A DNA stretch of 64,000 bases. It comes from Thiomargarita sp. (GTDB lineage Bacteria > Pseudomonadota > Gammaproteobacteria > Beggiatoales > Beggiatoaceae). The position numbers and the translations under genes were made by a program. The stretch lies in the NCBI GenBank assembly GCA_020721005.1, contig DYNP01000001.1:1-64000 (forward strand), written 5' to 3'. The notes beneath the pieces were generated by a model. That model was not told the origin of the DNA. It saw only the letters and a list, made by a program, of their open reading frames with translations, and did not search any database. This document shows, one piece after another, positions 7,420 to 52,732 of the stretch; positions within the stretch are counted from its first letter, which is position 1, and each line of letters opens with the position of its first letter.

Positions 7420-8499
7420 ATGTCGTTTGCCCACCGTTACACCGGACTGATTGACCGATACCGGGATTTTTTACCCATTCGGGATGATACTCGAATTATC
7501 AGTTTAGGAGAAGGGAATACCCCTTTAATTCGTCTACACAACATTCCCACCAGTCTGAACAAAACTGTGGACATTTACGTCAAATATGAAGGACTGAATC
7601 CCACAGGCTCTTTCAAAGACCGGGGCATGACCATGGCCATCACCAAAAGCTTGGAAACCGGCAATCAGGCAGTCATTTGTGCCTCCACAGGCAACACCTC
7701 AGCCTCAGCGGCTGCTTACGCTGCCCGAGCCAAAATGATAGCCTTCGTTCTCATTCCCGATGGTAAAATTGCCCAAGGCAAACTGGCCCAAGCCATGATG
7801 CACGGCGCCATCATCATGCAAATTCAAGGTAATTTTGACGACGGCATGCGCTTGGTCAAAGAAGTGGCCGACCATGCTCCTGTGGAAATTGTCAATTCCA
7901 TCAACCCATTCCGTCTCCAAGGCCAAAAAACTGCCGCCTTTGAAATCATCGAAGCCTTAGGTCGTGCCCCGGATTACCACTGCTTACCCCTGGGGAACGC
8001 CGGTAACATCAGCGCCTATTGGATGGGCTACAGTCAATTCTATCAAGAAGGTATCGTCAACAAACGCCCCAAAATGTGTGCCTATCAAGCCTCTGGATCA
8101 GCCCCCTTTTTACGCGGACATCCAATTGACAATCCCGAAACCATTGCCACTGCCATCCGCATTGGCAACCCCCAAAGCTGGGACAAAGCTTGGAATGCCC
8201 AACGAGAATCCCAAGGCTGGTTTGATGAATTCACCGATGCAGAAATCCTCGCCACCCAAAAACTACTTGCAGAACAAGAAGGTATCTTTTGTGAACCCGC
8301 CTCAGCCATTTCAGTGGCTGGTGCTTTACGAGATATCAAAAGTGGCAAAATTCCCGAAGGTAGCCTGATTACCTGCACGCTCACCGGTCATGGACTCAAA
8401 GATCCTGACACCGCCATTCAACAAAGCACCGGACCCGTGCTCAAAGTCAAAGCTGAACTTTCCGCCGTCAAAACTGCCATTTTAGAAAATATCAGTTAA
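7420..8499 (+). CDS. thrC: Threonine synthase
   Basis: PLP-dependent enzyme converting O-phospho-L-homoserine to threonine and phosphate in the cytosol. The 359-residue protein has the fold-type II features: the PLP lysine K66 in NPTGSFKDRG, the ASTGNTSAS loop, and the glycine-rich phosphate-binding loop PLGNAGNISAY. The length fits the short (about 350-residue) class. The ATG at 7420 is preceded by AGAGGTAG. No hom or thrB gene is adjacent, so the pathway genes are scattered. The start of a long inverted-repeat element lies about 50 bp downstream. Confidence 0.95.
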   Translation: MSFAHRYTGLIDRYRDFLPIRDDTRIISLGEGNTPLIRLHNIPTSLNKTVDIYVKYEGLNPTGSFKDRGMTMAITKSLETGNQAVICASTGNTSASAAAYAARAKMIAFVLIPDGKIAQGKLAQAMMHGAIIMQIQGNFDDGMRLVKEVADHAPVEIVNSINPFRLQGQKTAAFEIIEALGRAPDYHCLPLGNAGNISAYWMGYSQFYQEGIVNKRPKMCAYQASGSAPFLRGHPIDNPETIATAIRIGNPQSWDKAWNAQRESQGWFDEFTDAEILATQKLLAEQEGIFCEPASAISVAGALRDIKSGKIPEGSLITCTLTGHGLKDPDTAIQQSTGPVLKVKAELSAVKTAILENIS

Positions 8500-44621: not shown

Positions 44622-45161
44622 CTAAAAATCATCTTCATCTAAGATTAGATTTTTATAGTCATTATAACCTTTAAATTGTTTCTGCAATAACTCTCGTCCT
44701 TGTTTTTCTAGCATTGAATGGAAACTAGAAAAGGGGTAGTCACGTAGATTTTGAACGTAACCGTGTTTTATAGGATTATTGAACAAATAATTTAAACGAA
44801 TCAAGTAGTCTTTTTCGTTGCGTGGACAATAATCCCAATAGTTCCACCAAATTCGTTGTTTAGTTTGGGTAGCTTGTTTGATATAGTAACCGCTGATACT
44901 ATGAATCTGTCTCATGATTTCCGATAAATGCTTCCCTTCACGACTTCTTCCTAAAAGATGGTAATGATTGTCCAAAATAACCCAGTGGTGTAACTCCCAT
45001 TGATATCTTTTAAAGGCTAGGTTGATGTAATTTAGCAATAATTCTTTTAGCTGGGAACTTCGTAGTAAAGGACTTTTTTGATAGATGGTCGCAGTAATAA
45101 AATAGGACGTGTCATCCATAAAAATATGAATTGGATTGTGTAATTTATTTGTTTTTTGCAT
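44622..45161 (-). CDS. REP-associated tyrosine transposase (RAYT, Y1 family)
   Basis: A 179-residue single-domain Y1 transposase. The HuH motif is HYH in LDNHYHLLGR and the nucleophilic Tyr is in NYLFNNPIKHGYV, with the usual downstream WxxYPFSSF-like DYPFSSF block. RAYTs nick and rejoin single strands at REP palindromes and are believed to spread them. Two REP-like hairpins lie directly upstream of the gene start (45173-45258), the normal RAYT arrangement. This is an intact, likely functional copy. The palindromes inside the neighbouring methylase gene could be its products only if they share sequence with its hairpins, which is not evident. Confidence 0.9.
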   Translation of the reverse strand: MQKTNKLHNPIHIFMDDTSYFITATIYQKSPLLRSSQLKELLLNYINLAFKRYQWELHHWVILDNHYHLLGRSREGKHLSEIMRQIHSISGYYIKQATQTKQRIWWNYWDYCPRNEKDYLIRLNYLFNNPIKHGYVQNLRDYPFSSFHSMLEKQGRELLQKQFKGYNDYKNLILDEDDF

Positions 45162-45172
45162 ATTTGTACCAA

Positions 45173-45258
45173 AAAACGGCTGAAGCCGTTTTATTCCTCC
45201 AATTGAATGTTCTTCAACAAGAATGCTTCAGCAGGAATGTAACGGCTTTAGCCGTTAC
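45173..45258. repeat. Pair of REP-like hairpins beside the RAYT gene
   Basis: The first hairpin is AAAACGGCTGAAGCCGTTTT (45173-45192) and the second GTAACGGCTTTAGCCGTTAC (45239-45258), both with an ACGGCT..AGCCGT core; a TTCAACAAGAATGCTTCAGCAGGAAT segment separates them. Two REPs in opposing or matched orientation next to a Y1 transposase form a BIME-like unit. The second hairpin includes the TAA stop codon (45255-45257) of the convergent methylase gene. The core resembles the GGCTTTAGCC palindromes at 26.6 kb. Confidence 0.8.
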
Positions 45259-48200
45259 GCTTTACCTTCCACCACCACAATCTCTTCCCCCGTCAAATCA
45301 TAAAGCCGATAAACCAACTGATCAATCTTCCGTTCCCATGCGCTGGTGTCTTCGCCGGCTTTTTTAGCGGCAAGGATTTTGTCTACTAATTCGATGAAGG
45401 GGCGTTGCTGGTCGGTGGATATTTTAGGAATCGGAATTTGCTCAACATAAATTGAGAAATGACGAATTCCTTTTTCACCTAATTGAGCAGAAATTGACTG
45501 ATAATACCAATTAATAAGTGAAGAATTTAAAATGGATAAAAGATATTTTAATCTTTCACCAGTAAAAAAATAGGCAGTGTTTGATAAAAATGAAGAATTT
45601 TCATTAAATGAAAAACAGAGCCTTTCTGCAATATCAGGATAAACCACCTTCTCCCGCTCAAACTCTTGCCAATAAGCAATTTGGTCTTGGGTTTCAAACC
45701 ATTGATTACCTGTTTTTTTACGACAACCACTTTCACCCGTTTGATGCAACCGTTTACCAAAACTTTCCAAATAGCTCTTAATCGCGGGATAATCATCAAT
45801 ATTAATTTTCAAACTTGGAAAAGTCGCAATAATCCACAACCCCGCCCACTCATACCCATACCGCTTAATATCTCGTCCGCGCAAAATCGGCTTAATGATT
45901 TCTGAACTTTTCGGGTCTTCCTGACATAATTGCTCCTTTTTCGCCGTATTGATAATAAATGCTTCATTAAAACCTGTTAAAACACCACGATAGATTTTCA
46001 CATCCCATTCTTTCAACGGCGTACCAATCGCCTCAATTTTCGCCTTCAACGCCTGCACTTTCTCATCACCCAACACAAACGCCTTCTTATTCAAACAACT
46101 CTGCGCCAACGACTGTAACGGTTTCTCAACCGTCGGCAAATCCTCACCAACCCACAAAACTGACCGAGCGTCATTCCCGCGCAAGCGGGAATCCATGCAA
46201 GATGTGGATTCCGACTTTCGTCGGAATGACGAAGATTTGTTTTCAGGCAATGACGAAGATTCTTCTTCAGGTGAAGATCCTTTTTCAGGCAGAGTTAGAC
46301 ATAATTTGTCAGTTCCCTTTCTAAATAACAAAATATTCGCGTCTACCGTCGCATCAAAAACAGCCTTCCCCTTAAAATCAATCAACTGTAACAACGTCGT
46401 GCGCGTTAAGAAAAACTCCCGCAACTTCTCACCGTACTTAGTACGCATCCACTTATTCGAGGTAATAAATGCTAAAACGCCCTGTTCCTTCAAAAAATTA
46501 AAACCCGCTTCATAAAAATAAGTATACAAATCTGAAGTCCCCGTAAACACCTGATAACTTTTCAAATCGGGTTTCAAATGCTTAATCGCTTCTTGACGAA
46601 TATAAGGCGGATTTCCCAAAACCACATCAAACCCCCCCGTTCCCCCCCTTGCTAAGGGGGGGCTAGGAGGGGTCACGCCAAACATCCAAAACGGATCAAA
46701 CCACAAACAACTCTCATCTGAAAATGGTTTCCACGAAAACAATTGTTGAGCTTGTGAACCTTTTACCCCTTTAATATTCTGATTCCAATTTAAAAACCGC
46801 TCAAACATCTTCTTTTGGACATTTTCAAATTTCTGTTGAATAGTTTGTTTCTGTTGTGCATTTTGTACCGTAAAATATTCCTCTCGTAAGCGTTCCAAGT
46901 CTTTATCGTCAGTGCTTTCTTCAAAAAATTCTACTTGCGAAACAGTTTCATCTCTTCCTTTCTGAGGCAATCCTTTCAATGTATTCGCACACACAAACTT
47001 AAAATCCAAGTTCGGCAACGGAATAATCCCACGATTCGGTTTATCCTCTTCCACTTTTTCGTCCACAATCAACGCCAAAAAACACCGTAGCCGACTGATT
47101 TCCACCGCAATGGGCTGAATATCCACTCCATAAATACATTCTCGCAAAATACCCAACTTGCGCGTATAATTCCACAATTCCTTTTCTCCTTGCAATTTTT
47201 CCTGCATAAACTGCCGTGCCATCGCATCCGGGATATTTTCCAATAAATTTTTTAACCATTGCTCACAATTCGGATCCAGCCGTTGTAACATCAAGGTCAA
47301 TTTTTGCAACACGCCCATCGGAAACGCGCCAGAACCACATGCTGGGTCGAAAATTTTCAATTGCTGAATCGCTTGAATGATGAGTTGTGTTTCTTCTGTA
47401 TTAAAGGGATTTAGCGAATTATCATAACTCAAAAGGAGTGCAAACCTTGGTTTGCATATTCCAGAAGAATGCAAATCAAGATTTGCACTCCGATCAGGAT
47501 TTGCACTCCGATGAAAGATATTCTCAAAATATGCAATCAATGCCTCATCTACCATATAATCCACAATTTCACGGGGCGTATAATAACTTCCCGTTGCTTT
47601 TCTTGCTGTTTCACCCGTTTCTGGATTAATTTCTGCTAACAAATTCTCAAAAATCTGCCCTAACATCTCCGGATCAATCGCCACTTGCACATCCATCGGC
47701 GTATTTTCTTCAATGGTAAAATGATACCGTTCAAAAAATCTCAATAATTTCGCTAACCAATCTGCTGGCACAATTAGCGTATTAAGCGTACAATTTCCAT
47801 CATAAAAATCATGGACATGCGGTTCAAATAATCCGCCATTCAAAAACGGAACTTGTTGCCAATCACCCTTTTGAAGCACTGGTTTCCGCTGTGCCAATTC
47901 CTTGTTTAACACCTCAAAAAATAACGGTTCCAACGTTTCATGATAAAAATGTTCCTTTACCGACTTTGAAGACAAAATTTCACTCGAAATTAAAGAAATC
48001 CCCTTTTTCGAAGTCTTTTTCTGCAAAAACCAACAAAATAACAACCGTCCAATCAAACGCATTGCAAATTCTTTCAGCACCTTATCATCAGCAATACTCG
48101 GTAATTTCAATGAAGTCGGATAAGTATTTCTCTGACGTTCACCGCCAACCAATTGCGTAAATAATACGGCTAATTCTTGATAAAACTGTTTATTTAACAG

Positions 48201-48842
48201 AGAAATATCTAAAACTTCCTGCCATTTTTGATACAATTTGACAAAATTGCTCACTTGTAAATCAGACAACATTAATTGTTGCAAAATATCCAAATGCGCC
48301 CGATGCAAATGAGCAATCGCAATTTCTTTAATTAATGTGACTTTTTCCAAAACATCTCGACTCCCATCTCGTTGATGTAATCTGCGGTGAATCACTGACA
48401 ATGTCAACGTTTCTCCATGCTTAAACAATAAAATCGCCGGCATCGCAAAAATTTGATTAATTGCCCGCGTCATTTGAGCTAAATCCGTCCGCGAATACCG
48501 CGTTTGTTTCAATTCCAATGCAACGAATAAAAACGATTCAATAATTGAATTATCAATGGGTTGTGTCACTGCTTGAAACGCTGGCTTTATCGGTTTAATC
48601 TCATCATCCGTTAATTGAAATAACAGATAAACTTCCTGCCATTCTGCAAATAAACCACGTTCTTTATTAAAACGTTGTTGAGCATCATAATTTTCCAAAA
48701 AAGTCTCTGGCGAACCGCTTTCTTCAATCCGTCGTTCACTAATATAGCCCAACGCATTGAAAAATTTTAGAGACTGCGTCAGTAAATCGTTTTGCGCAAA
48801 GTTTTGGATGATTTGAGTGAGGAATTCTTTAGGGTTTGTCAT
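45255..48842 (-). CDS. Type IIG-like DNA methylase of an R-M/defence cassette, with in-frame repeats
   Basis: A 1195-residue protein. N-terminal part: alpha/beta region with FVALELKQTRYSRTDLAQM, possibly the remains of a PD-(D/E)XK core (ELK). Middle: MLGQIFENLLAEINPETGETARKATGSYYTPREIVDYMVDEAL, the pre-methylase block, then motif I IFDPACGSGAFPMGVL and motif IV FDVVLGNPPYIRQ (NPPY for N6-adenine). C-terminal: TaqI/Eco57I-type target recognition domains (LKEWDVKIYRGVLTGFNEAF, ILRGRDIKRYGYEW). Three stretches are encoded by palindromic repeats: 47435-47509, 46632-46673 and 46169-46231; all keep the frame. The TAA stop lies in a REP hairpin. It is the last gene of the cassette, 15 bp after the small nuclease-like gene. 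Activity is probable for the methylase, uncertain given the insertions. Confidence 0.85.
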   Translation of the reverse strand: MTNPKEFLTQIIQNFAQNDLLTQSLKFFNALGYISERRIEESGSPETFLENYDAQQRFNKERGLFAEWQEVYLLFQLTDDEIKPIKPAFQAVTQPIDNSIIESFLFVALELKQTRYSRTDLAQMTRAINQIFAMPAILLFKHGETLTLSVIHRRLHQRDGSRDVLEKVTLIKEIAIAHLHRAHLDILQQLMLSDLQVSNFVKLYQKWQEVLDISLLNKQFYQELAVLFTQLVGGERQRNTYPTSLKLPSIADDKVLKEFAMRLIGRLLFCWFLQKKTSKKGISLISSEILSSKSVKEHFYHETLEPLFFEVLNKELAQRKPVLQKGDWQQVPFLNGGLFEPHVHDFYDGNCTLNTLIVPADWLAKLLRFFERYHFTIEENTPMDVQVAIDPEMLGQIFENLLAEINPETGETARKATGSYYTPREIVDYMVDEALIAYFENIFHRSANPDRSANLDLHSSGICKPRFALLLSYDNSLNPFNTEETQLIIQAIQQLKIFDPACGSGAFPMGVLQKLTLMLQRLDPNCEQWLKNLLENIPDAMARQFMQEKLQGEKELWNYTRKLGILRECIYGVDIQPIAVEISRLRCFLALIVDEKVEEDKPNRGIIPLPNLDFKFVCANTLKGLPQKGRDETVSQVEFFEESTDDKDLERLREEYFTVQNAQQKQTIQQKFENVQKKMFERFLNWNQNIKGVKGSQAQQLFSWKPFSDESCLWFDPFWMFGVTPPSPPLARGGTGGFDVVLGNPPYIRQEAIKHLKPDLKSYQVFTGTSDLYTYFYEAGFNFLKEQGVLAFITSNKWMRTKYGEKLREFFLTRTTLLQLIDFKGKAVFDATVDANILLFRKGTDKLCLTLPEKGSSPEEESSSLPENKSSSFRRKSESTSCMDSRLRGNDARSVLWVGEDLPTVEKPLQSLAQSCLNKKAFVLGDEKVQALKAKIEAIGTPLKEWDVKIYRGVLTGFNEAFIINTAKKEQLCQEDPKSSEIIKPILRGRDIKRYGYEWAGLWIIATFPSLKINIDDYPAIKSYLESFGKRLHQTGESGCRKKTGNQWFETQDQIAYWQEFEREKVVYPDIAERLCFSFNENSSFLSNTAYFFTGERLKYLLSILNSSLINWYYQSISAQLGEKGIRHFSIYVEQIPIPKISTDQQRPFIELVDKILAAKKAGEDTSAWERKIDQLVYRLYDLTGEEIVVVEGKA
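46169..46231. repeat. CATTCCCGC/CGGAATGACG-type repeat inside the methylase gene
   Basis: CGTCATTCCCGCGCAAGCGG and TCCGACTTTCGTCGGAATGA are versions of a very common proteobacterial dispersed repeat. On the coding strand it reads FRRKSESTSCMDSRLRGNDA, a typical translation artefact of the repeat. Neighbouring codons (46232-46300) are low complexity, Glu/Ser-rich and probably derived from the same insertion. The 63-bp length is a multiple of three. Confidence 0.8.
46632..46673. repeat. C/G-run palindrome inside the methylase gene
   Basis: CCCCCCCTTGCTAAGGGGGG is the core of a palindromic element that translates as TPPSPPLARGGTGG (14 codons, 42 bp), again a typical repeat-derived peptide. It stands a few residues before the catalytic FDVVLGNPPY motif, in what should be a surface loop. 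Confidence 0.75.
47435..47509. repeat. TGCAAATC/GATTTGCA-type repeat inside the methylase gene
   Basis: Contains two perfect palindromes, TGCAAACCTTGGTTTGCA and TGCAAATCAAGATTTGCA, flanked by GGAGTGC and GCACTCC. The whole block is about 75 bp (25 codons) and is translated as part of the sequence between SYYTPREIVDYMVDEALIAYFENIF and the motif I region. Confidence 0.75.
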
Positions 48843-48857
48843 ATCAGGATACTCAAG

Positions 48858-49475
48858 TTATTTGATTTCCACGTTTTTTTTCAGCGAAGCCAGTTTCATG
48901 ATAGCGCAAGCTGCTCCAAAAACCTCATCTATATTATCAATCGTCGCTCTCGTATAATTTTTAGTAAAAATTGCACCTTCCAACTTACCCAATTGCCAAA
49001 CTTCTGCATCGGTGACTATTCCATAAACAGCTTTACTACTGTCTTTATTGAGTTTTTGTGCGGCGAGCAGTTCCACTAAACATTGTCCCCAACCGCGCTT
49101 AAAATCATTTTGTTTAGCTTCGACCACTAAAACTAACGGTAAACCAAGTACGTTTTTACCCAATTCAGAACGTTCGGTAATCATATAGTCTGGGGTGCCG
49201 GTCAAAACCTCATCAACTGAGATAAGTTTATGACTCCATAATGAATATTTTTCAACATAGTTTTTACAAACTTCACGTAACAAGGGATAAATAACGTTTT
49301 CACACCGTGAAGCCTCAGAACTGAATATATCAAAATGCTCATTGGCAAATTGATATTCTAAAACAAATGATTCTGGTGTTTTTAAAGGAGATAACGTCAA
49401 AAAATCCTTTTCCACCAGTTTTATCTGATAGGCTTCTTGAACTTCATCCGCCGATTTAAAATCAGTAAATGCCAT
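48858..49475 (-). CDS. PD-(D/E)XK nuclease-like protein of the defence cassette
   Basis: A 205-residue soluble protein. It has GTPDYMI followed, 23 residues on, by LVVEAKQNDF, i.e. PD...ExK, with a downstream QCLVELLAA helix, as in many restriction-like nucleases. The ATG at 49475 lies 2 bp after the helicase stop, so translation is coupled; a longer frame to 49511 only overlaps the helicase end. It ends 15 bp before the methylase gene. It might be the nuclease component of the cassette or a specificity factor. No close family recognised. Confidence 0.78.
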   Translation of the reverse strand: MAFTDFKSADEVQEAYQIKLVEKDFLTLSPLKTPESFVLEYQFANEHFDIFSSEASRCENVIYPLLREVCKNYVEKYSLWSHKLISVDEVLTGTPDYMITERSELGKNVLGLPLVLVVEAKQNDFKRGWGQCLVELLAAQKLNKDSSKAVYGIVTDAEVWQLGKLEGAIFTKNYTRATIDNIDEVFGAACAIMKLASLKKNVEIK

Positions 49476-49477
49476 CG

Positions 49478-52400
49478 CTAATCCTCGTGCTTTACTTGAA
49501 TGACTAACCAAGAAATTAACACAAAATCCTCATTTTGTCTAAGCTGTTGTGAACTCTCGAATAGTTTTCCACTCCGCCCAGTAGATAAATGACCTAAATT
49601 ACGTTTTTCCCATAAACGTGCAATCGAAGCAATTGCTTTTTCTAGCAAATTATTATAAAAACTTAAATTTTTTCCATTTTGTGTTGCTTCATCAAATAAA
49701 TGATGCAAACTATGATATGCTTCTTTTTTACCAATGCATAATTTTTGGAAGATTTGTAAAATTTCTTTCGGACGAGAAAAACTGTATTTTATCTGACCAT
49801 CTGCTAAGACATAAACGAGGAAAAATGGATGTAATGGGTTAATCACTTGTTGTTCATCTGATTTGATGTCTTTTTTGGATGCTAAACAGAAAATAACGCC
49901 CGGCGTAATCTGCCATTTATCGTCCTGATAAGGTGGGACAATTGCTAATAAACCTAAAGGAGCATCTTTCAATGTCCGTTCTTGCGTTGCTAAATAATAA
50001 GTTAATTCCTGTCGAAAATCGTCTAAATTAAACTCGTTTAAAGTGATGGTTTCGTCAAAATCTTCTAAATCTAAAACTTCTTCTTTTAAGCGTTTCAATT
50101 GATGATCTCGAAAAGTAAGTTCGCTTTGCACTTTTTGTTCTTGCGCTAATAAATTATCTGCCGCCGTTGCAGTGACATCTACCAATGCCATCCGTGCTTC
50201 TACACGGTTTTTGAGATTCAGATAATCGTCCAAATCTTCGGTTGGCCAAAAATTAACCAATTGGACTGTTTTATTCAAACTATTGAGGCGATCAATGCGT
50301 CCAAAACGTTGAATAATACGCACGGGATTCCAATGAATATCATAGTTGACGAGATAATCGCAATCTTGTAAATTTTGCCCTTCAGAAATGCAATCAGTGG
50401 CAATCAGCAAATCAATTTCTTCTGCGGTTTCGGTTTCATTCGATTGTCGTTCTTTGGAACGCGGCGAAAAATGGGTGAGAATTTCTTCAAAATCCTTTTT
50501 TCCCAACGTCGTTTTATTTTCACTGCCAGAAACTAAAGCAATGCGAATTTTTAGGTCATTCACTGCCCATTTTTCCAAATGTTCATAAAGATATTTCGCA
50601 GTGTCAGCAAAGGCAGTGAATACCAGCACTTTACGGTTCGGTTTATCTTTTTTATTGTGAGTAGGATGACGTACTTTGTTCTCAATTAATGTTTGCAATT
50701 CTGCTAACTTCGCATCGCGGACTACCGTAATTGTTTGAGCAGCTTCATAAACCTGTTGCAATTGGGTCCTATCTTCTTGTAAATCCGCTAACCATGCTTC
50801 TATATCCAAATGCGCTGGATCAATTTTCTCGCCAATTTGTAACGCATCTTCCAATTCTTCATCTTCTTCCTCAAAATTTAAGTTATTACTAAGATCAAAG
50901 TCGTGTTTACTGCGCAGTTTATCTTCTAAATCTTTAATTTTATTGATAGTGCGTTCTAGCGTCAGCGTAAAAGAATATACGGAACTTTCCAAGCGTTTCA
51001 TAAAATTGACTTTCATCATGCCAATTAAATAATATTCTCGTTGCCGCACTTGTTTGATTTTGTACTTTGCAAAAAATTCCTCTTTGACGTAAGAAGAGGG
51101 GTTGAAAAGCGCCAGTTTGTATTGAGAAATCTTGTCATTAATTGCTTTGTAAGACATAAACTGTTTTTGTTGGTCTATTTCAGCAAAAATTGCTTTGGGT
51201 GGTAAGCGTTCTGGAAACTGTCCTAAGGTTTCCATCGTTTCTTGATAATGCTGTTCAATGTGTCGCCGCGACCGCGCAATCGTCAATTCATCCAACAATT
51301 TGAAGAAATCAGCATCCAATTGTCCGAGTAGAACATTTTTATCGCGTTTGCCCGCGATTTCAGACCATTCTTTGAAATGTTGTTGAGCAGATTTTAAAGT
51401 GTCTCGTACACTACGAATTCCCATTTTTTCTCGAAAAGCGTCATCTCGTCCTTCTGAGAAAAAAGCTATTTGATTGCACAAATCGCTTAAATCGGTATTC
51501 ACCGGTGTTGCAGATAAAAGGAGCACTTTGGTTTTAGCAATTCCTTGCTTTTTAATGACTTCTTCTAGTAGGCGCTGGTAACGACTTTTGCGAATGAGTT
51601 GTCCTTCCGCATCTTTTTTGCCAACGCTGTTATTTCTAAAGTTATGGGATTCGTCAATGACCACTAAATCGAAATTTCCCCAAGCAAAATTTGCTAGATC
51701 AATGTCTCCTACTTTTCCTTGCGTGCGACTAAGGTCGGTGTGTGATAATACGGTATAATGAAAACGGTCTTGGTTGAATGGGTTGCGTTTATCTGCTAAA
51801 TAAATATACCTCGTCCAGTTTTGTTTTAATTTTTTGGGACAAAGCACTAAAACACGATAATTGAGCATTTCAAAATGTTTGATGATTGCAAGGGCTTCAA
51901 AGGTTTTTCCAAGTCCCACACTGTCAGCAATAATACAGCCATTATGCCGGTTTAATTTAGCAATGGCACTGGTTACGCCGTCTTTTTGGAAATCGTAGAG
52001 TTTTTGCCAAATTTGCGTGTCAAAGAAATGGGTTTTGATACCGAGATAATCGGTATTTTTCTGCTCTTCAATGAATTGTTTAAAGAGATGGTAAAGTGTT
52101 TTAAAATAAAGAAATTCTGGCGTACTAGGTTTGTAAACTTCGCCTAAATAGCGCAATACTTCTTTAGTCACGTCTTCCACTTGTTTATCGTCGTTCCAAA
52201 GCGCGTCAAACCAGTCTTTTAGGTCGTGACGGTCGCGGTCGCTGTCTACGATCAGGTTCAGTTCAAGATTGGGCGTATTGGTTAAACCCAGCCCGCACAA
52301 CGTGAAATTGGAACTGCCTAAAATGGCTTTTTCAGTGCCATTATGGGCGGTGATATGATAGAGTTTGCCATGTAAAAAGTTAGGTTGGCGAACAGATTTA

Positions 52401-52732
52401 ATACAGACTTTTTGGCGAATCCAATCGGCGCAGGCTTTGGCAATTTGGCTTTGTCGCAGTTGATCAATTAGTTTTAGACCGTCTTTTTCGAGAATGAAGG
52501 TTTTTTCTGCTGTTTTCTCGGGATCAATCTGGCGAATGAAATGCGGTTCACCAAATAGGAAACGTAATTCCTGAATATTTTCCAGTTTTGCTTGCAATTC
52601 GGCAAAAGCATAGATCGTAAAGTAAGCAGAAACAATGGCAAGATTTGAATTTTCTTGAATATTTTCTTGGAGAAAAGTACCCACAGTACCTCTGGTGTTG
52701 TTGTCTCTGATGCCGGATTTTTCGTGCAGCAT
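49478..52732 (-). CDS. PLD-SNF2 helicase fusion of the defence cassette
   Basis: A 1084-residue protein. Residues about 20-200 hold a phospholipase D-like nuclease domain (LHGKLYHITAHNG, then AILGSSNFTLCGLGL, the HxK...N/S of an HKD site). It is followed by a superfamily 2 helicase of SNF2/HepA type: motif I ADSVGLGKTFEAL, motif II VVIDESHNF, motif III LLSATPVNTDL, and in the second lobe LVFTAFADTAKYL, LLIATDCISEGQNLQDC and IQRFGRIDRLNS. The C-terminus (about 300 residues) is of unknown fold. The first gene of a three-gene unit, with AAGGAAG 8 nt before its ATG. Such nuclease-helicase fusions occur in phage-defence loci; ATP-driven movement along DNA is inferred. Confidence 0.88.
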   Translation of the reverse strand: MLHEKSGIRDNNTRGTVGTFLQENIQENSNLAIVSAYFTIYAFAELQAKLENIQELRFLFGEPHFIRQIDPEKTAEKTFILEKDGLKLIDQLRQSQIAKACADWIRQKVCIKSVRQPNFLHGKLYHITAHNGTEKAILGSSNFTLCGLGLTNTPNLELNLIVDSDRDRHDLKDWFDALWNDDKQVEDVTKEVLRYLGEVYKPSTPEFLYFKTLYHLFKQFIEEQKNTDYLGIKTHFFDTQIWQKLYDFQKDGVTSAIAKLNRHNGCIIADSVGLGKTFEALAIIKHFEMLNYRVLVLCPKKLKQNWTRYIYLADKRNPFNQDRFHYTVLSHTDLSRTQGKVGDIDLANFAWGNFDLVVIDESHNFRNNSVGKKDAEGQLIRKSRYQRLLEEVIKKQGIAKTKVLLLSATPVNTDLSDLCNQIAFFSEGRDDAFREKMGIRSVRDTLKSAQQHFKEWSEIAGKRDKNVLLGQLDADFFKLLDELTIARSRRHIEQHYQETMETLGQFPERLPPKAIFAEIDQQKQFMSYKAINDKISQYKLALFNPSSYVKEEFFAKYKIKQVRQREYYLIGMMKVNFMKRLESSVYSFTLTLERTINKIKDLEDKLRSKHDFDLSNNLNFEEEDEELEDALQIGEKIDPAHLDIEAWLADLQEDRTQLQQVYEAAQTITVVRDAKLAELQTLIENKVRHPTHNKKDKPNRKVLVFTAFADTAKYLYEHLEKWAVNDLKIRIALVSGSENKTTLGKKDFEEILTHFSPRSKERQSNETETAEEIDLLIATDCISEGQNLQDCDYLVNYDIHWNPVRIIQRFGRIDRLNSLNKTVQLVNFWPTEDLDDYLNLKNRVEARMALVDVTATAADNLLAQEQKVQSELTFRDHQLKRLKEEVLDLEDFDETITLNEFNLDDFRQELTYYLATQERTLKDAPLGLLAIVPPYQDDKWQITPGVIFCLASKKDIKSDEQQVINPLHPFFLVYVLADGQIKYSFSRPKEILQIFQKLCIGKKEAYHSLHHLFDEATQNGKNLSFYNNLLEKAIASIARLWEKRNLGHLSTGRSGKLFESSQQLRQNEDFVLISWLVIQVKHED

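What the first reader, a model, noticed from the sequence alone, without database searches (positions are those of the whole stretch)
45255..52732. Three-gene PLD-SNF2 helicase / PD-(D/E)XK / type IIG methylase cassette
Seen: one tight minus-strand unit with a 2-bp gap between the first two genes and 15 bp between the last two, encoding a nuclease-helicase fusion, a small restriction-like nuclease and a large N6-adenine methylase with specificity domains. Known: DISARM uses SNF2, PLD and methylase parts together with drmA/drmB; BREX needs PglZ. None of those hallmark genes lies within the flanking sequence here. Inference: a complete, possibly unnamed, restriction or phage-defence system combining all three activities, inserted between the actP-yjcH region and glyA.
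Basis: partly seen in the sequence, partly recalled or inferred. Interest (0 to 1): 0.85.

Follow-up and report, generated by a model that had tools for sequence, protein, structure and literature searches.

The report
Motor-nuclease and methylase restriction pair
These neighbouring genes most likely form a small DNA-cutting immune system in which one protein marks the cell's own DNA and another, a motor carrying a nuclease, destroys unmarked DNA; the third, small nuclease gene looks like a local add-on.

Summary
In detail: three minus-strand genes, gaps of 2 and 15 bases. The conserved unit, however, is a pair. Gene 1 is a PLD(HKD)-Snf2 motor. Gene 3 is an Eco57I/TaqI-type methylase with a DUF4391-like N-terminus and no recognised nuclease. 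Of 17 loci with such a methylase, 13 have PLD-Snf2 beside or near it. The small PD-(D/E)XK gene is at none of the other 16; its six outside relatives lie elsewhere. The same motor family is commoner in a four-gene arrangement (motor, separate DUF4391, type III Mod, Res). New result: the HKD site is intact in 17 of 17 motors paired with an Eco57I-type methylase and absent in 56 of 56 assigned to the type III arrangement (Mod seen beside 48; the other 8 are cut by contig ends), where Res keeps its own nuclease motif (33 of 33 tested). So HKD is the likely cutting site here. This may be a single evolutionary switch. A PLD-SNF2 protein beside a nuclease-less 'type IIG' methylase was noted in 2018 on lactococcal plasmid pLd8, so this is a new variant of a known kind. 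Defence activity is inferred, not shown.

The parts
49478..52732 (-). gene 1: PLD(HKD)-Snf2 motor-nuclease, 1084 aa (core)
   Evidence: Pfam PLDc_2, SNF2-rel_dom, Helicase_C; PADLOC C3a139 'HKD+Snf2' 1.2e-128
52307..52372 (-). HKD-type active site H121-x-K123 ... G139-S-S-N142 in gene 1
   Evidence: pattern in 13 of 13 pair-context proteins of the tree, 0 of 48 type III-context ones; further rows
51455..51988 (-). SNF2 ATPase domain of gene 1 (Walker A GKT, DESH)
   Evidence: motifs kept in 61 tree rows apart from single conservative swaps
50285..50650 (-). helicase C-terminal domain of gene 1 (QRFGRIDR)
48858..49475 (-). gene 2: small PD-(D/E)XK-type protein, 205 aa; probable accessory lodged between the core genes
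   Evidence: PADLOC PD_DExK 9.2e-43; E54, P95-D96-Y97, E119-A-K121, Q131 invariant in 6 of 6 aligned sequences
45255..48842 (-). gene 3: DUF4391-like::Eco57I/TaqI_C N6-adenine methylase, 1195 aa (core)
   Evidence: Pfam Eco57I 4e-42, TaqI_C 8.8e-16; PADLOC REase_MTase_IIG 6.5e-149
48138..48842 (-). DUF4391-like N-terminal domain of gene 3 (about residues 1-235)
   Evidence: Pfam DUF4391 below cut-off, 1.2e-4; hhalign with 17 stand-alone DUF4391 proteins prob 94.8, E 5.1e-8; nearly the same order of strands and helices in the two models
46305..47387 (-). methylase catalytic domain of gene 3 (DPACGSG, NPPY)
45429..45893 (-). TaqI-like target-recognition domain of gene 3

Best explanation
A two-subunit, ATP-dependent restriction-modification system with a lodged accessory nuclease. 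The methylase subunit recognises a DNA site through its TaqI-like domain and methylates an adenine, protecting the host (inferred from domains). Its N-terminal DUF4391-like domain is the likely dock for the PLD-Snf2 motor, since in the commoner type III arrangement the same domain is a separate protein encoded between the same motor and Mod (homology shown, docking inferred). On unmodified DNA the motor is loaded, uses ATP to translocate or switch, and its HKD domain, probably as a dimer, cuts the DNA (inferred from the intact motif and the absence of any Res). The PD-(D/E)XK gene in the middle is a lineage-specific addition, perhaps a second nuclease or backup effector, not needed for the core.
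For: Pairing recurs: of 17 loci holding a methylase with this N-terminus, 13 have PLD-Snf2 beside or near it: four families of the window's phylum, a cyanobacterial plasmid and four IMG/VR contigs. In six (L032, L090, L092, L116, L117, L118) the two genes overlap or lie within 12 bases. In a 61-row tree one branch (SH-aLRT 99) separates pair-context from type III-context motors. HKD pattern: 13 of 13 against 0 of 48. Further rows: 0 of 8 type III members; present in L120, L121, L129 and L094, each next to an Eco57I-type methylase. Res keeps P-D...E-x-K in 33 of 33 tested. N-terminus versus DUF4391; topology. Gene 2 is absent from the other 16 fusion-methylase loci, and its six outside relatives lack the core genes in the DNA held.
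Against: No activity is shown for any member. Two of the 17 fusion methylases have no PLD-Snf2 nearby (L108, L109) and two more lie at contig ends without one in view (L110, L112); a fragmentary contig (L114) and a remnant in the own genome (L093), not among the 17, also show none. So the methylase may work alone or with other partners. The HKD contrast may be one change on one branch. DUF4391 is a sub-threshold Pfam match in 4 of 7 fusion methylases scanned. The N-terminal model is only moderately confident (pLDDT 71), and Foldseek finds no known fold for it or for DUF4391, so an unrecognised nuclease there is not excluded. The window methylase carries palindromic insertions in frame that could impair it. 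Broken relatives exist: the methylase in L032 is split between two frames, the motor in L113 is in pieces.
Confidence: 0.66

Rival explanations
1. A self-sufficient type IIG enzyme (gene 3 both methylates and cuts) that merely sits beside a PLD-Snf2 defence gene.
For: PADLOC calls gene 3 REase_MTase_IIG at 6.5e-149; related methylases occur without PLD-Snf2 at L108 and L109, and at contig ends L110 and L112.
Against: No nuclease domain is recognised in gene 3; its N-terminus aligns with DUF4391; 13 of 17 such methylases sit with PLD-Snf2, six of them overlapping it or within 12 bases; L108 has a separate small ORF with a D..DVK pattern just upstream (seen by eye).
Confidence: 0.15
2. A genuine three-subunit system, in which the PD-(D/E)XK protein is the cutting subunit and the HKD-Snf2 protein is the motor.
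For: Gene 2 is tightly spaced between the other two and its PD...ExK motif is invariant in six aligned homologues.
Against: Gene 2 is missing from the other 16 loci with the fusion methylase; its six outside relatives lie among other genes; the motor keeps an intact HKD.
Confidence: 0.12
3. A degraded or silent remnant, carried as cargo and no longer functional.
For: Palindromic insertions in frame in gene 3, a remnant of a second copy of its N-terminus elsewhere in the genome, and broken homologues in L032 and L113.
Against: All three frames are open with intact catalytic motifs; the insertions fall in segments that are absent or vary in length among nine relatives.
Confidence: 0.07

Closest known systems
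pLd8 orf33/orf34 of Lactococcus lactis FM03P and the pJM1F pair (L120)
   Same: PLD+SNF2 helicase protein next to a 'type IIG' N6-methylase with a TaqI-like domain and no restriction domain; PLD proposed as the cutting site (PMC6098607, section 10). The pJM1F pair has Eco57I and a PLD-Snf2 motor with intact HKD.
   Different: The pJM1F proteins are distant: motor 29-31% identical over parts, methylase 32% from residue 203 on; Pfam recognises no DUF4391 there. pLd8 itself was not compared here.
Four-gene type III arrangement: PLD-like/Snf2 motor, DUF4391, Mod, Res (no name found; motor = PADLOC C3a139)
   Same: Homologous motor (38-44% identical by tblastn) and homologous DUF4391 domain.
   Different: The methylase is a type III Mod with a Res subunit; DUF4391 is a separate protein; the motor lacks the HKD pattern in 56 of 56.
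DISARM class 1 (DrmD, DrmC, DrmMI)
   Same: SNF2 motor, PLD and Eco57I-type methylase parts; DrmD (3e-42) and DrmMI (3.1e-28) profiles match, far below the best profile.
   Different: NCBIfam DrmD 162.7 bits against a cut-off of 610; no MZB/DUF1998 in the genome; PLD fused to the motor.
DUF499-centred BREX-related type 2 (Hma-like) systems
   Same: HKD fused in front of a Swi2/Snf2 motor, plus an N6-methylase (PMC12839542, sections 28 and 30 read).
   Different: No DUF499 match anywhere in the genome; the motor matches C3a139 far better than HmaA (1.2e-128 against 2.9e-22).
CglI (R.CglI + H.CglI)
   Same: PLD-family nuclease working with a helicase-like ATPase in ATP-dependent restriction (PMC5737866, passages seen).
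   Different: There PLD and motor are separate proteins and DNA recognition lies in a B3-like domain of the nuclease; here PLD and motor are fused and recognition probably lies in the methylase.

Membership tests
PLD-Snf2 + nuclease-less 'IIG' methylase pair (pLd8 type) | PLD and SNF2 domains in one protein | tested here: met
PLD-Snf2 + nuclease-less 'IIG' methylase pair (pLd8 type) | adjacent N6-methylase with TaqI-like domain and no restriction domain | tested here: met
   (Eco57I, TaqI_C, no nuclease family; gene 2 lies between the two genes); an unknown nuclease is not excluded
Type III restriction-modification | Mod-type methylase and Res subunit adjacent | tested here: not met
   the methylase is Eco57I/TaqI type; no Res among 12 flanking ORFs
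Type IIG | methylase and nuclease in one chain | tested here: inconclusive
   profile match to IIG models, but no nuclease domain recognised and the N-terminus is DUF4391-like
DISARM | DrmB (MZB/DUF1998 domain, link recalled) | tested here: not met
   no PF09369 match in the whole genome; 8 of 14 control genomes ring
DISARM | DrmA | tested here: inconclusive
   gene 1 matches one DrmA profile at 7.7e-23, as a helicase; none in 10 flanking ORFs; not searched genome-wide
BREX | PglZ | tested here: not met
   no PF08665 match in the whole genome; 2 of 14 controls ring
DUF499-centred BR / Hma | DUF499 ATPase | tested here: not met
   no PF04465 match in the whole genome; 1 of 14 controls rings
DUF499-centred BR type 2 | DUF3780 | not tested
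   not searched as a family
Any named restriction system | restriction of unmodified DNA and protection by methylation | not testable with these tools
   needs expression and phage plating

The most novel reading that the evidence does not exclude
The PLD-Snf2 motor and its DUF4391 dock are a portable restriction engine that has been coupled to two different kinds of methylase: Eco57I-type, with the dock fused and the HKD nuclease live, and type III Mod, with the dock separate and the HKD nuclease dead because Res does the cutting. The pair would then be its own class of ATP-dependent restriction system, and an extra helicase found beside many type III systems would be an engine whose nuclease was switched off.
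Probability: 0.42. Interest if true: 0.75.

Novelty: new variant of a known kind. Interest (0 to 1): 0.6.

Why it matters
It ties a domain of unknown function (DUF4391) and a widespread motor family without a system name in PADLOC to a clear, testable role, and explains why one arrangement keeps and the other loses a nuclease site. It may bear on extra helicases beside type III systems: Murray et al. (first author recalled) reported an additional helicase-like gene without a nuclease motif beside some type III genes, in more than 500 genomes (PMC8259958, passages seen). Whether that gene belongs to this family was not tested.

Tried and rejected
Rejected: a DISARM, BREX or DUF499/Hma filing; a conserved three-gene cassette (gene 2 stands apart).

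Led nowhere: Foldseek of the N-terminal model and of the DUF4391 model against PDB gave no match at E <= 0.001; VIA-align mostly matched the C-terminal helical part of DUF4391 (residues 189-258). A profile of gene 2 found no solved structure at E <= 1. Ten paper searches: 'DUF4391' is held by one paper, which looks unrelated in the listing (not read); 'C3a139' with related words gave none; in the listings and in the eight papers of which I opened passages or sections (PMC12839542, PMC8259958, PMC2292703, PMC10853773, PMC5737866, PMC6098607, PMC3710099, PMC7641849) I saw no description of the DUF4391 link or of the HKD contrast. Only this open library was searched; subscription papers are mostly missing, so a name given elsewhere cannot be excluded. 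The origin of the PADLOC name C3a139 was not found.

Rows dropped before counts: L085 (partial motor), L089 (short match), L062 (same contig as L118) and L113 (broken motor; its N-terminal piece has HKD) were not put in the tree; L094, L120 (first bases of the motor cut), L121 and L129 were scored outside it. L010 was left out of A4 because its frame is broken. L119 is in the tree as a pair-context row, but its methylase matches only the end of the N-terminal query, so it is not among the 17 fusion loci; L114 (fragments at a contig end) and L093 (remnant) are not among them either. In L116 only the N-terminal part of the methylase is held, and in L090 and L091 it runs off the contig. L098 and L119 have very long branches. 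The label 'type III' was given by default in the tree: Mod was detected in 40 of 48 and Res in 37 of 48; the eight without Mod (L036, L046, L067, L070, L073, L078, L087, L088) end within about 700 bases of the motor. Four of 48 type III motors have an H-x-K somewhere in residues 61-200 without the rest of the pattern. Held-out L130 has no annotated Res.
Full report
Observation. The three ORFs are present at the stated coordinates with gaps of 2 and 15 bases. Gene 1 has PLDc_2, SNF2 and Helicase_C domains; gene 3 has Eco57I and TaqI_C domains; gene 2 has no Pfam family but matches a PADLOC PD_DExK profile at 9.2e-43. G+C is lower across the genes than in parts of both flanks. Beyond gene 3 lie a REP-associated tyrosine transposase gene (NCBIfam) and a 127-aa ORF without a family.

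What the core is. Gene 1 occurs once in its genome. A search of 398 genomes of the phylum gave 22 with a match at E <= 1e-40, own genome included. Of 20 neighbourhoods fetched, one (L032, the closest, 49% identical) has a homologue of gene 3 directly after the motor. The other 19 have a DUF4391 gene after it, and type III Mod was detected in 17 of these 19, the other two (L036, L046) being cut by contig ends. The remaining genome, G353, was fetched later (L094): its motor is followed by an Eco57I methylase with a type ISP C-terminal domain. Plasmid and phage records show the order motor, DUF4391, methylase, DEAD/DEAH or Res in Vibrio, Enterococcus, Acinetobacter (an IS element annotated between the last two), Escherichia, Mycolicibacterium, Leuconostoc, Lactiplantibacillus, the archaeon Methanomethylovorans (one extra ORF) and Erysipelothrix phage phi1605. 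Persicobacter has Mod and Res further downstream, Desulforapulum only a Res fragment, and Acetobacter no annotated Res.

The N-terminus of gene 3. Residues 1-300 were used as a query. They match 3 of 369 class genomes and 6 of 40 near relatives, own genome included in both. Pfam DUF4391 matches below its cut-off in the window (22.5 bits against 29.9) and in L107, L115 and L117, but not in L092, L109 or L111 at 0.001: 4 of 7. A profile of six such N-termini aligns with 17 stand-alone DUF4391 proteins over 176 columns, probability 94.8, E 5.1e-8. Predicted models (pLDDT 71 and 90) show, compared by eye, nearly the same order of strands and helices, with one helix of the stand-alone protein reduced to three residues in gene 3. 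Neither has a PDB match at E <= 0.001. So gene 3 is a DUF4391-like::methylase fusion, and no nuclease domain is recognised in it.

Distribution of the pair. Loci with the fusion methylase: window, L032, L090, L091, L092, L098, L107, L111, L113, L115, L116, L117, L118 with PLD-Snf2 beside or near it; L108, L109, L110, L112 without. L110 and L112 lie at contig ends. L114 (fragments) and L093 (a remnant in the own genome) also show no PLD-Snf2. In L091 and L115 another ORF sits between the two genes (a short ORF without a Pfam family, and a KilA-N protein). In L113 an AAA and an HNH gene sit between the methylase and a broken motor. An SMC/AAA-like ATPase gene follows the methylase in L092, L115 and L117, and by eye in L032. 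L115-L118 come from contigs of the IMG/VR viral collection. More distant pairs of an HKD-Snf2 protein and an Eco57I-type methylase are on plasmids of Lactococcus cremoris, Parabacteroides distasonis and Paenarthrobacter and in L119 (with another ORF between).

Gene 2. E54, P95-D96-Y97, E119-A-K121 and Q131 are invariant in six aligned sequences. It matched 2 of 299 phylum genomes, own included. Its relatives at six outside loci (L003/L095, L006-L010) lie among other genes, without genes 1 or 3 in the DNA held (L007, L009 and L010 hold only 0.6-2 kb on one side; the weak gene 1 match in L003/L095 is a DEAD-box helicase by eye). Two weak relatives lie elsewhere in the own genome. None of the other 16 fusion-methylase loci has it. 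It is therefore best read as an accessory in a slot that also receives other genes.

HKD contrast. In a 61-row tree, 13 pair-context and 48 type III-context motors fall on two sides of one branch (SH-aLRT 99; quick method, two very long branches). The SNF2 motifs are kept in the 61 rows apart from single conservative swaps. The pattern H-x-K...G-[ST]-x-N is present in 13 of 13 and 0 of 48; a separate local alignment of the N-termini agrees. In further rows it is absent in 8 of 8 type III members (L122-L128, L130) and present in L120, L121, L129 and L094: in all 17 of 17 against 0 of 56, with Mod or an annotated methyltransferase seen beside 48 of the 56. The N-terminal piece of the broken motor in L113 also has it. 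Res proteins over 900 aa keep P-D...E-x-K in 33 of 33. Because the most distant pair-context motors also have HKD, loss on the type III branch is the simpler polarity. This may be a single event, so the counts measure how consistently each side has kept its state, not independent trials.

Mechanism and rivals. The most likely working is given under Best explanation: shown are the domains, the conserved pairing, the homology of the dock domain and the state of the active-site motifs; inferred are docking, translocation, cutting and defence. CglI is a biochemical precedent for a PLD nuclease working with a helicase-like ATPase (PMC5737866, passages).

Prior work. PMC6098607 (passages and section 10 read) described on plasmid pLd8 a PLD-SNF2-helicase gene beside a REBASE type IIG methylase without a restriction domain, suggested that PLD cuts, and compared it with class I DISARM. 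The BREX-related survey PMC12839542 (abstract, outline, sections 28 and 30 and passages) describes HKD-Snf2 + N6-methylase + DUF499 systems. PMC7641849 (passages) notes SWI2/SNF2-nuclease + methylase + DUF499 operons in archaea. PMC10853773 (passages) describes other HKD-helicase fusions; PMC2292703 (passages) notes N-terminal HKD domains on some type III-like helicases; PMC3710099 (passages) concerns HEPN proteins beside such systems. PMC8259958 (passages) reports an extra helicase without a nuclease motif beside some type III systems. What I did not find in these passages or in the listed searches is the DUF4391 link and the on/off state of the HKD site.

Verdict. A real, probably functional two-gene restriction system plus a local add-on; a new variant of a known, little-studied kind.

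Noticed in passing
window 47435-47491, 46631-46673, 46169-46231: Three palindromic short repeats sit in frame inside the methylase gene. The second and third are absent, bar a few residues, from 9 aligned relatives; the first lies in a segment of variable length. A strict pattern for the third occurs once in the own genome and in none of 24 other genomes searched, which hints that the gene came from elsewhere.
   Followed up: partly
window 44622-45161: A REP-associated tyrosine transposase gene lies just downstream of the methylase, close to those palindromes; no link was tested.
   Followed up: no
L093 (own genome C133:45000-62000), about 8043-8270, minus strand: Remnant of a second copy of the DUF4391-like N-terminal domain.
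   Followed up: no
L108, 8947-9453: A 168-aa ORF with a PD-(D/E)XK-like D...DVK pattern (by eye; no Pfam hit) directly upstream of a fusion methylase that lacks the PLD-Snf2 gene: perhaps a partner swap.
   Followed up: partly
L112, 85-1700: An AAA_15/AAA_21 ATPase gene and a DUF3226 gene directly upstream of another fusion methylase at a contig end.
   Followed up: partly
L092, L115, L117 (and L032 by eye): An SMC/AAA-like ATPase gene recurs directly after the fusion methylase.
   Followed up: partly
L121, 688-10817: P. distasonis plasmid: Schlafen/AlbA_2 protein, HKD-Snf2, N6-methylase, a hypothetical protein and a TIR-domain protein in a row on one strand, a larger defence-like cluster.
   Followed up: no
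L006, 7078-13948: Gene 2's relative lies among small ORFs, mostly on one strand, some resembling toxin-antitoxin or nuclease genes by eye.
   Followed up: no
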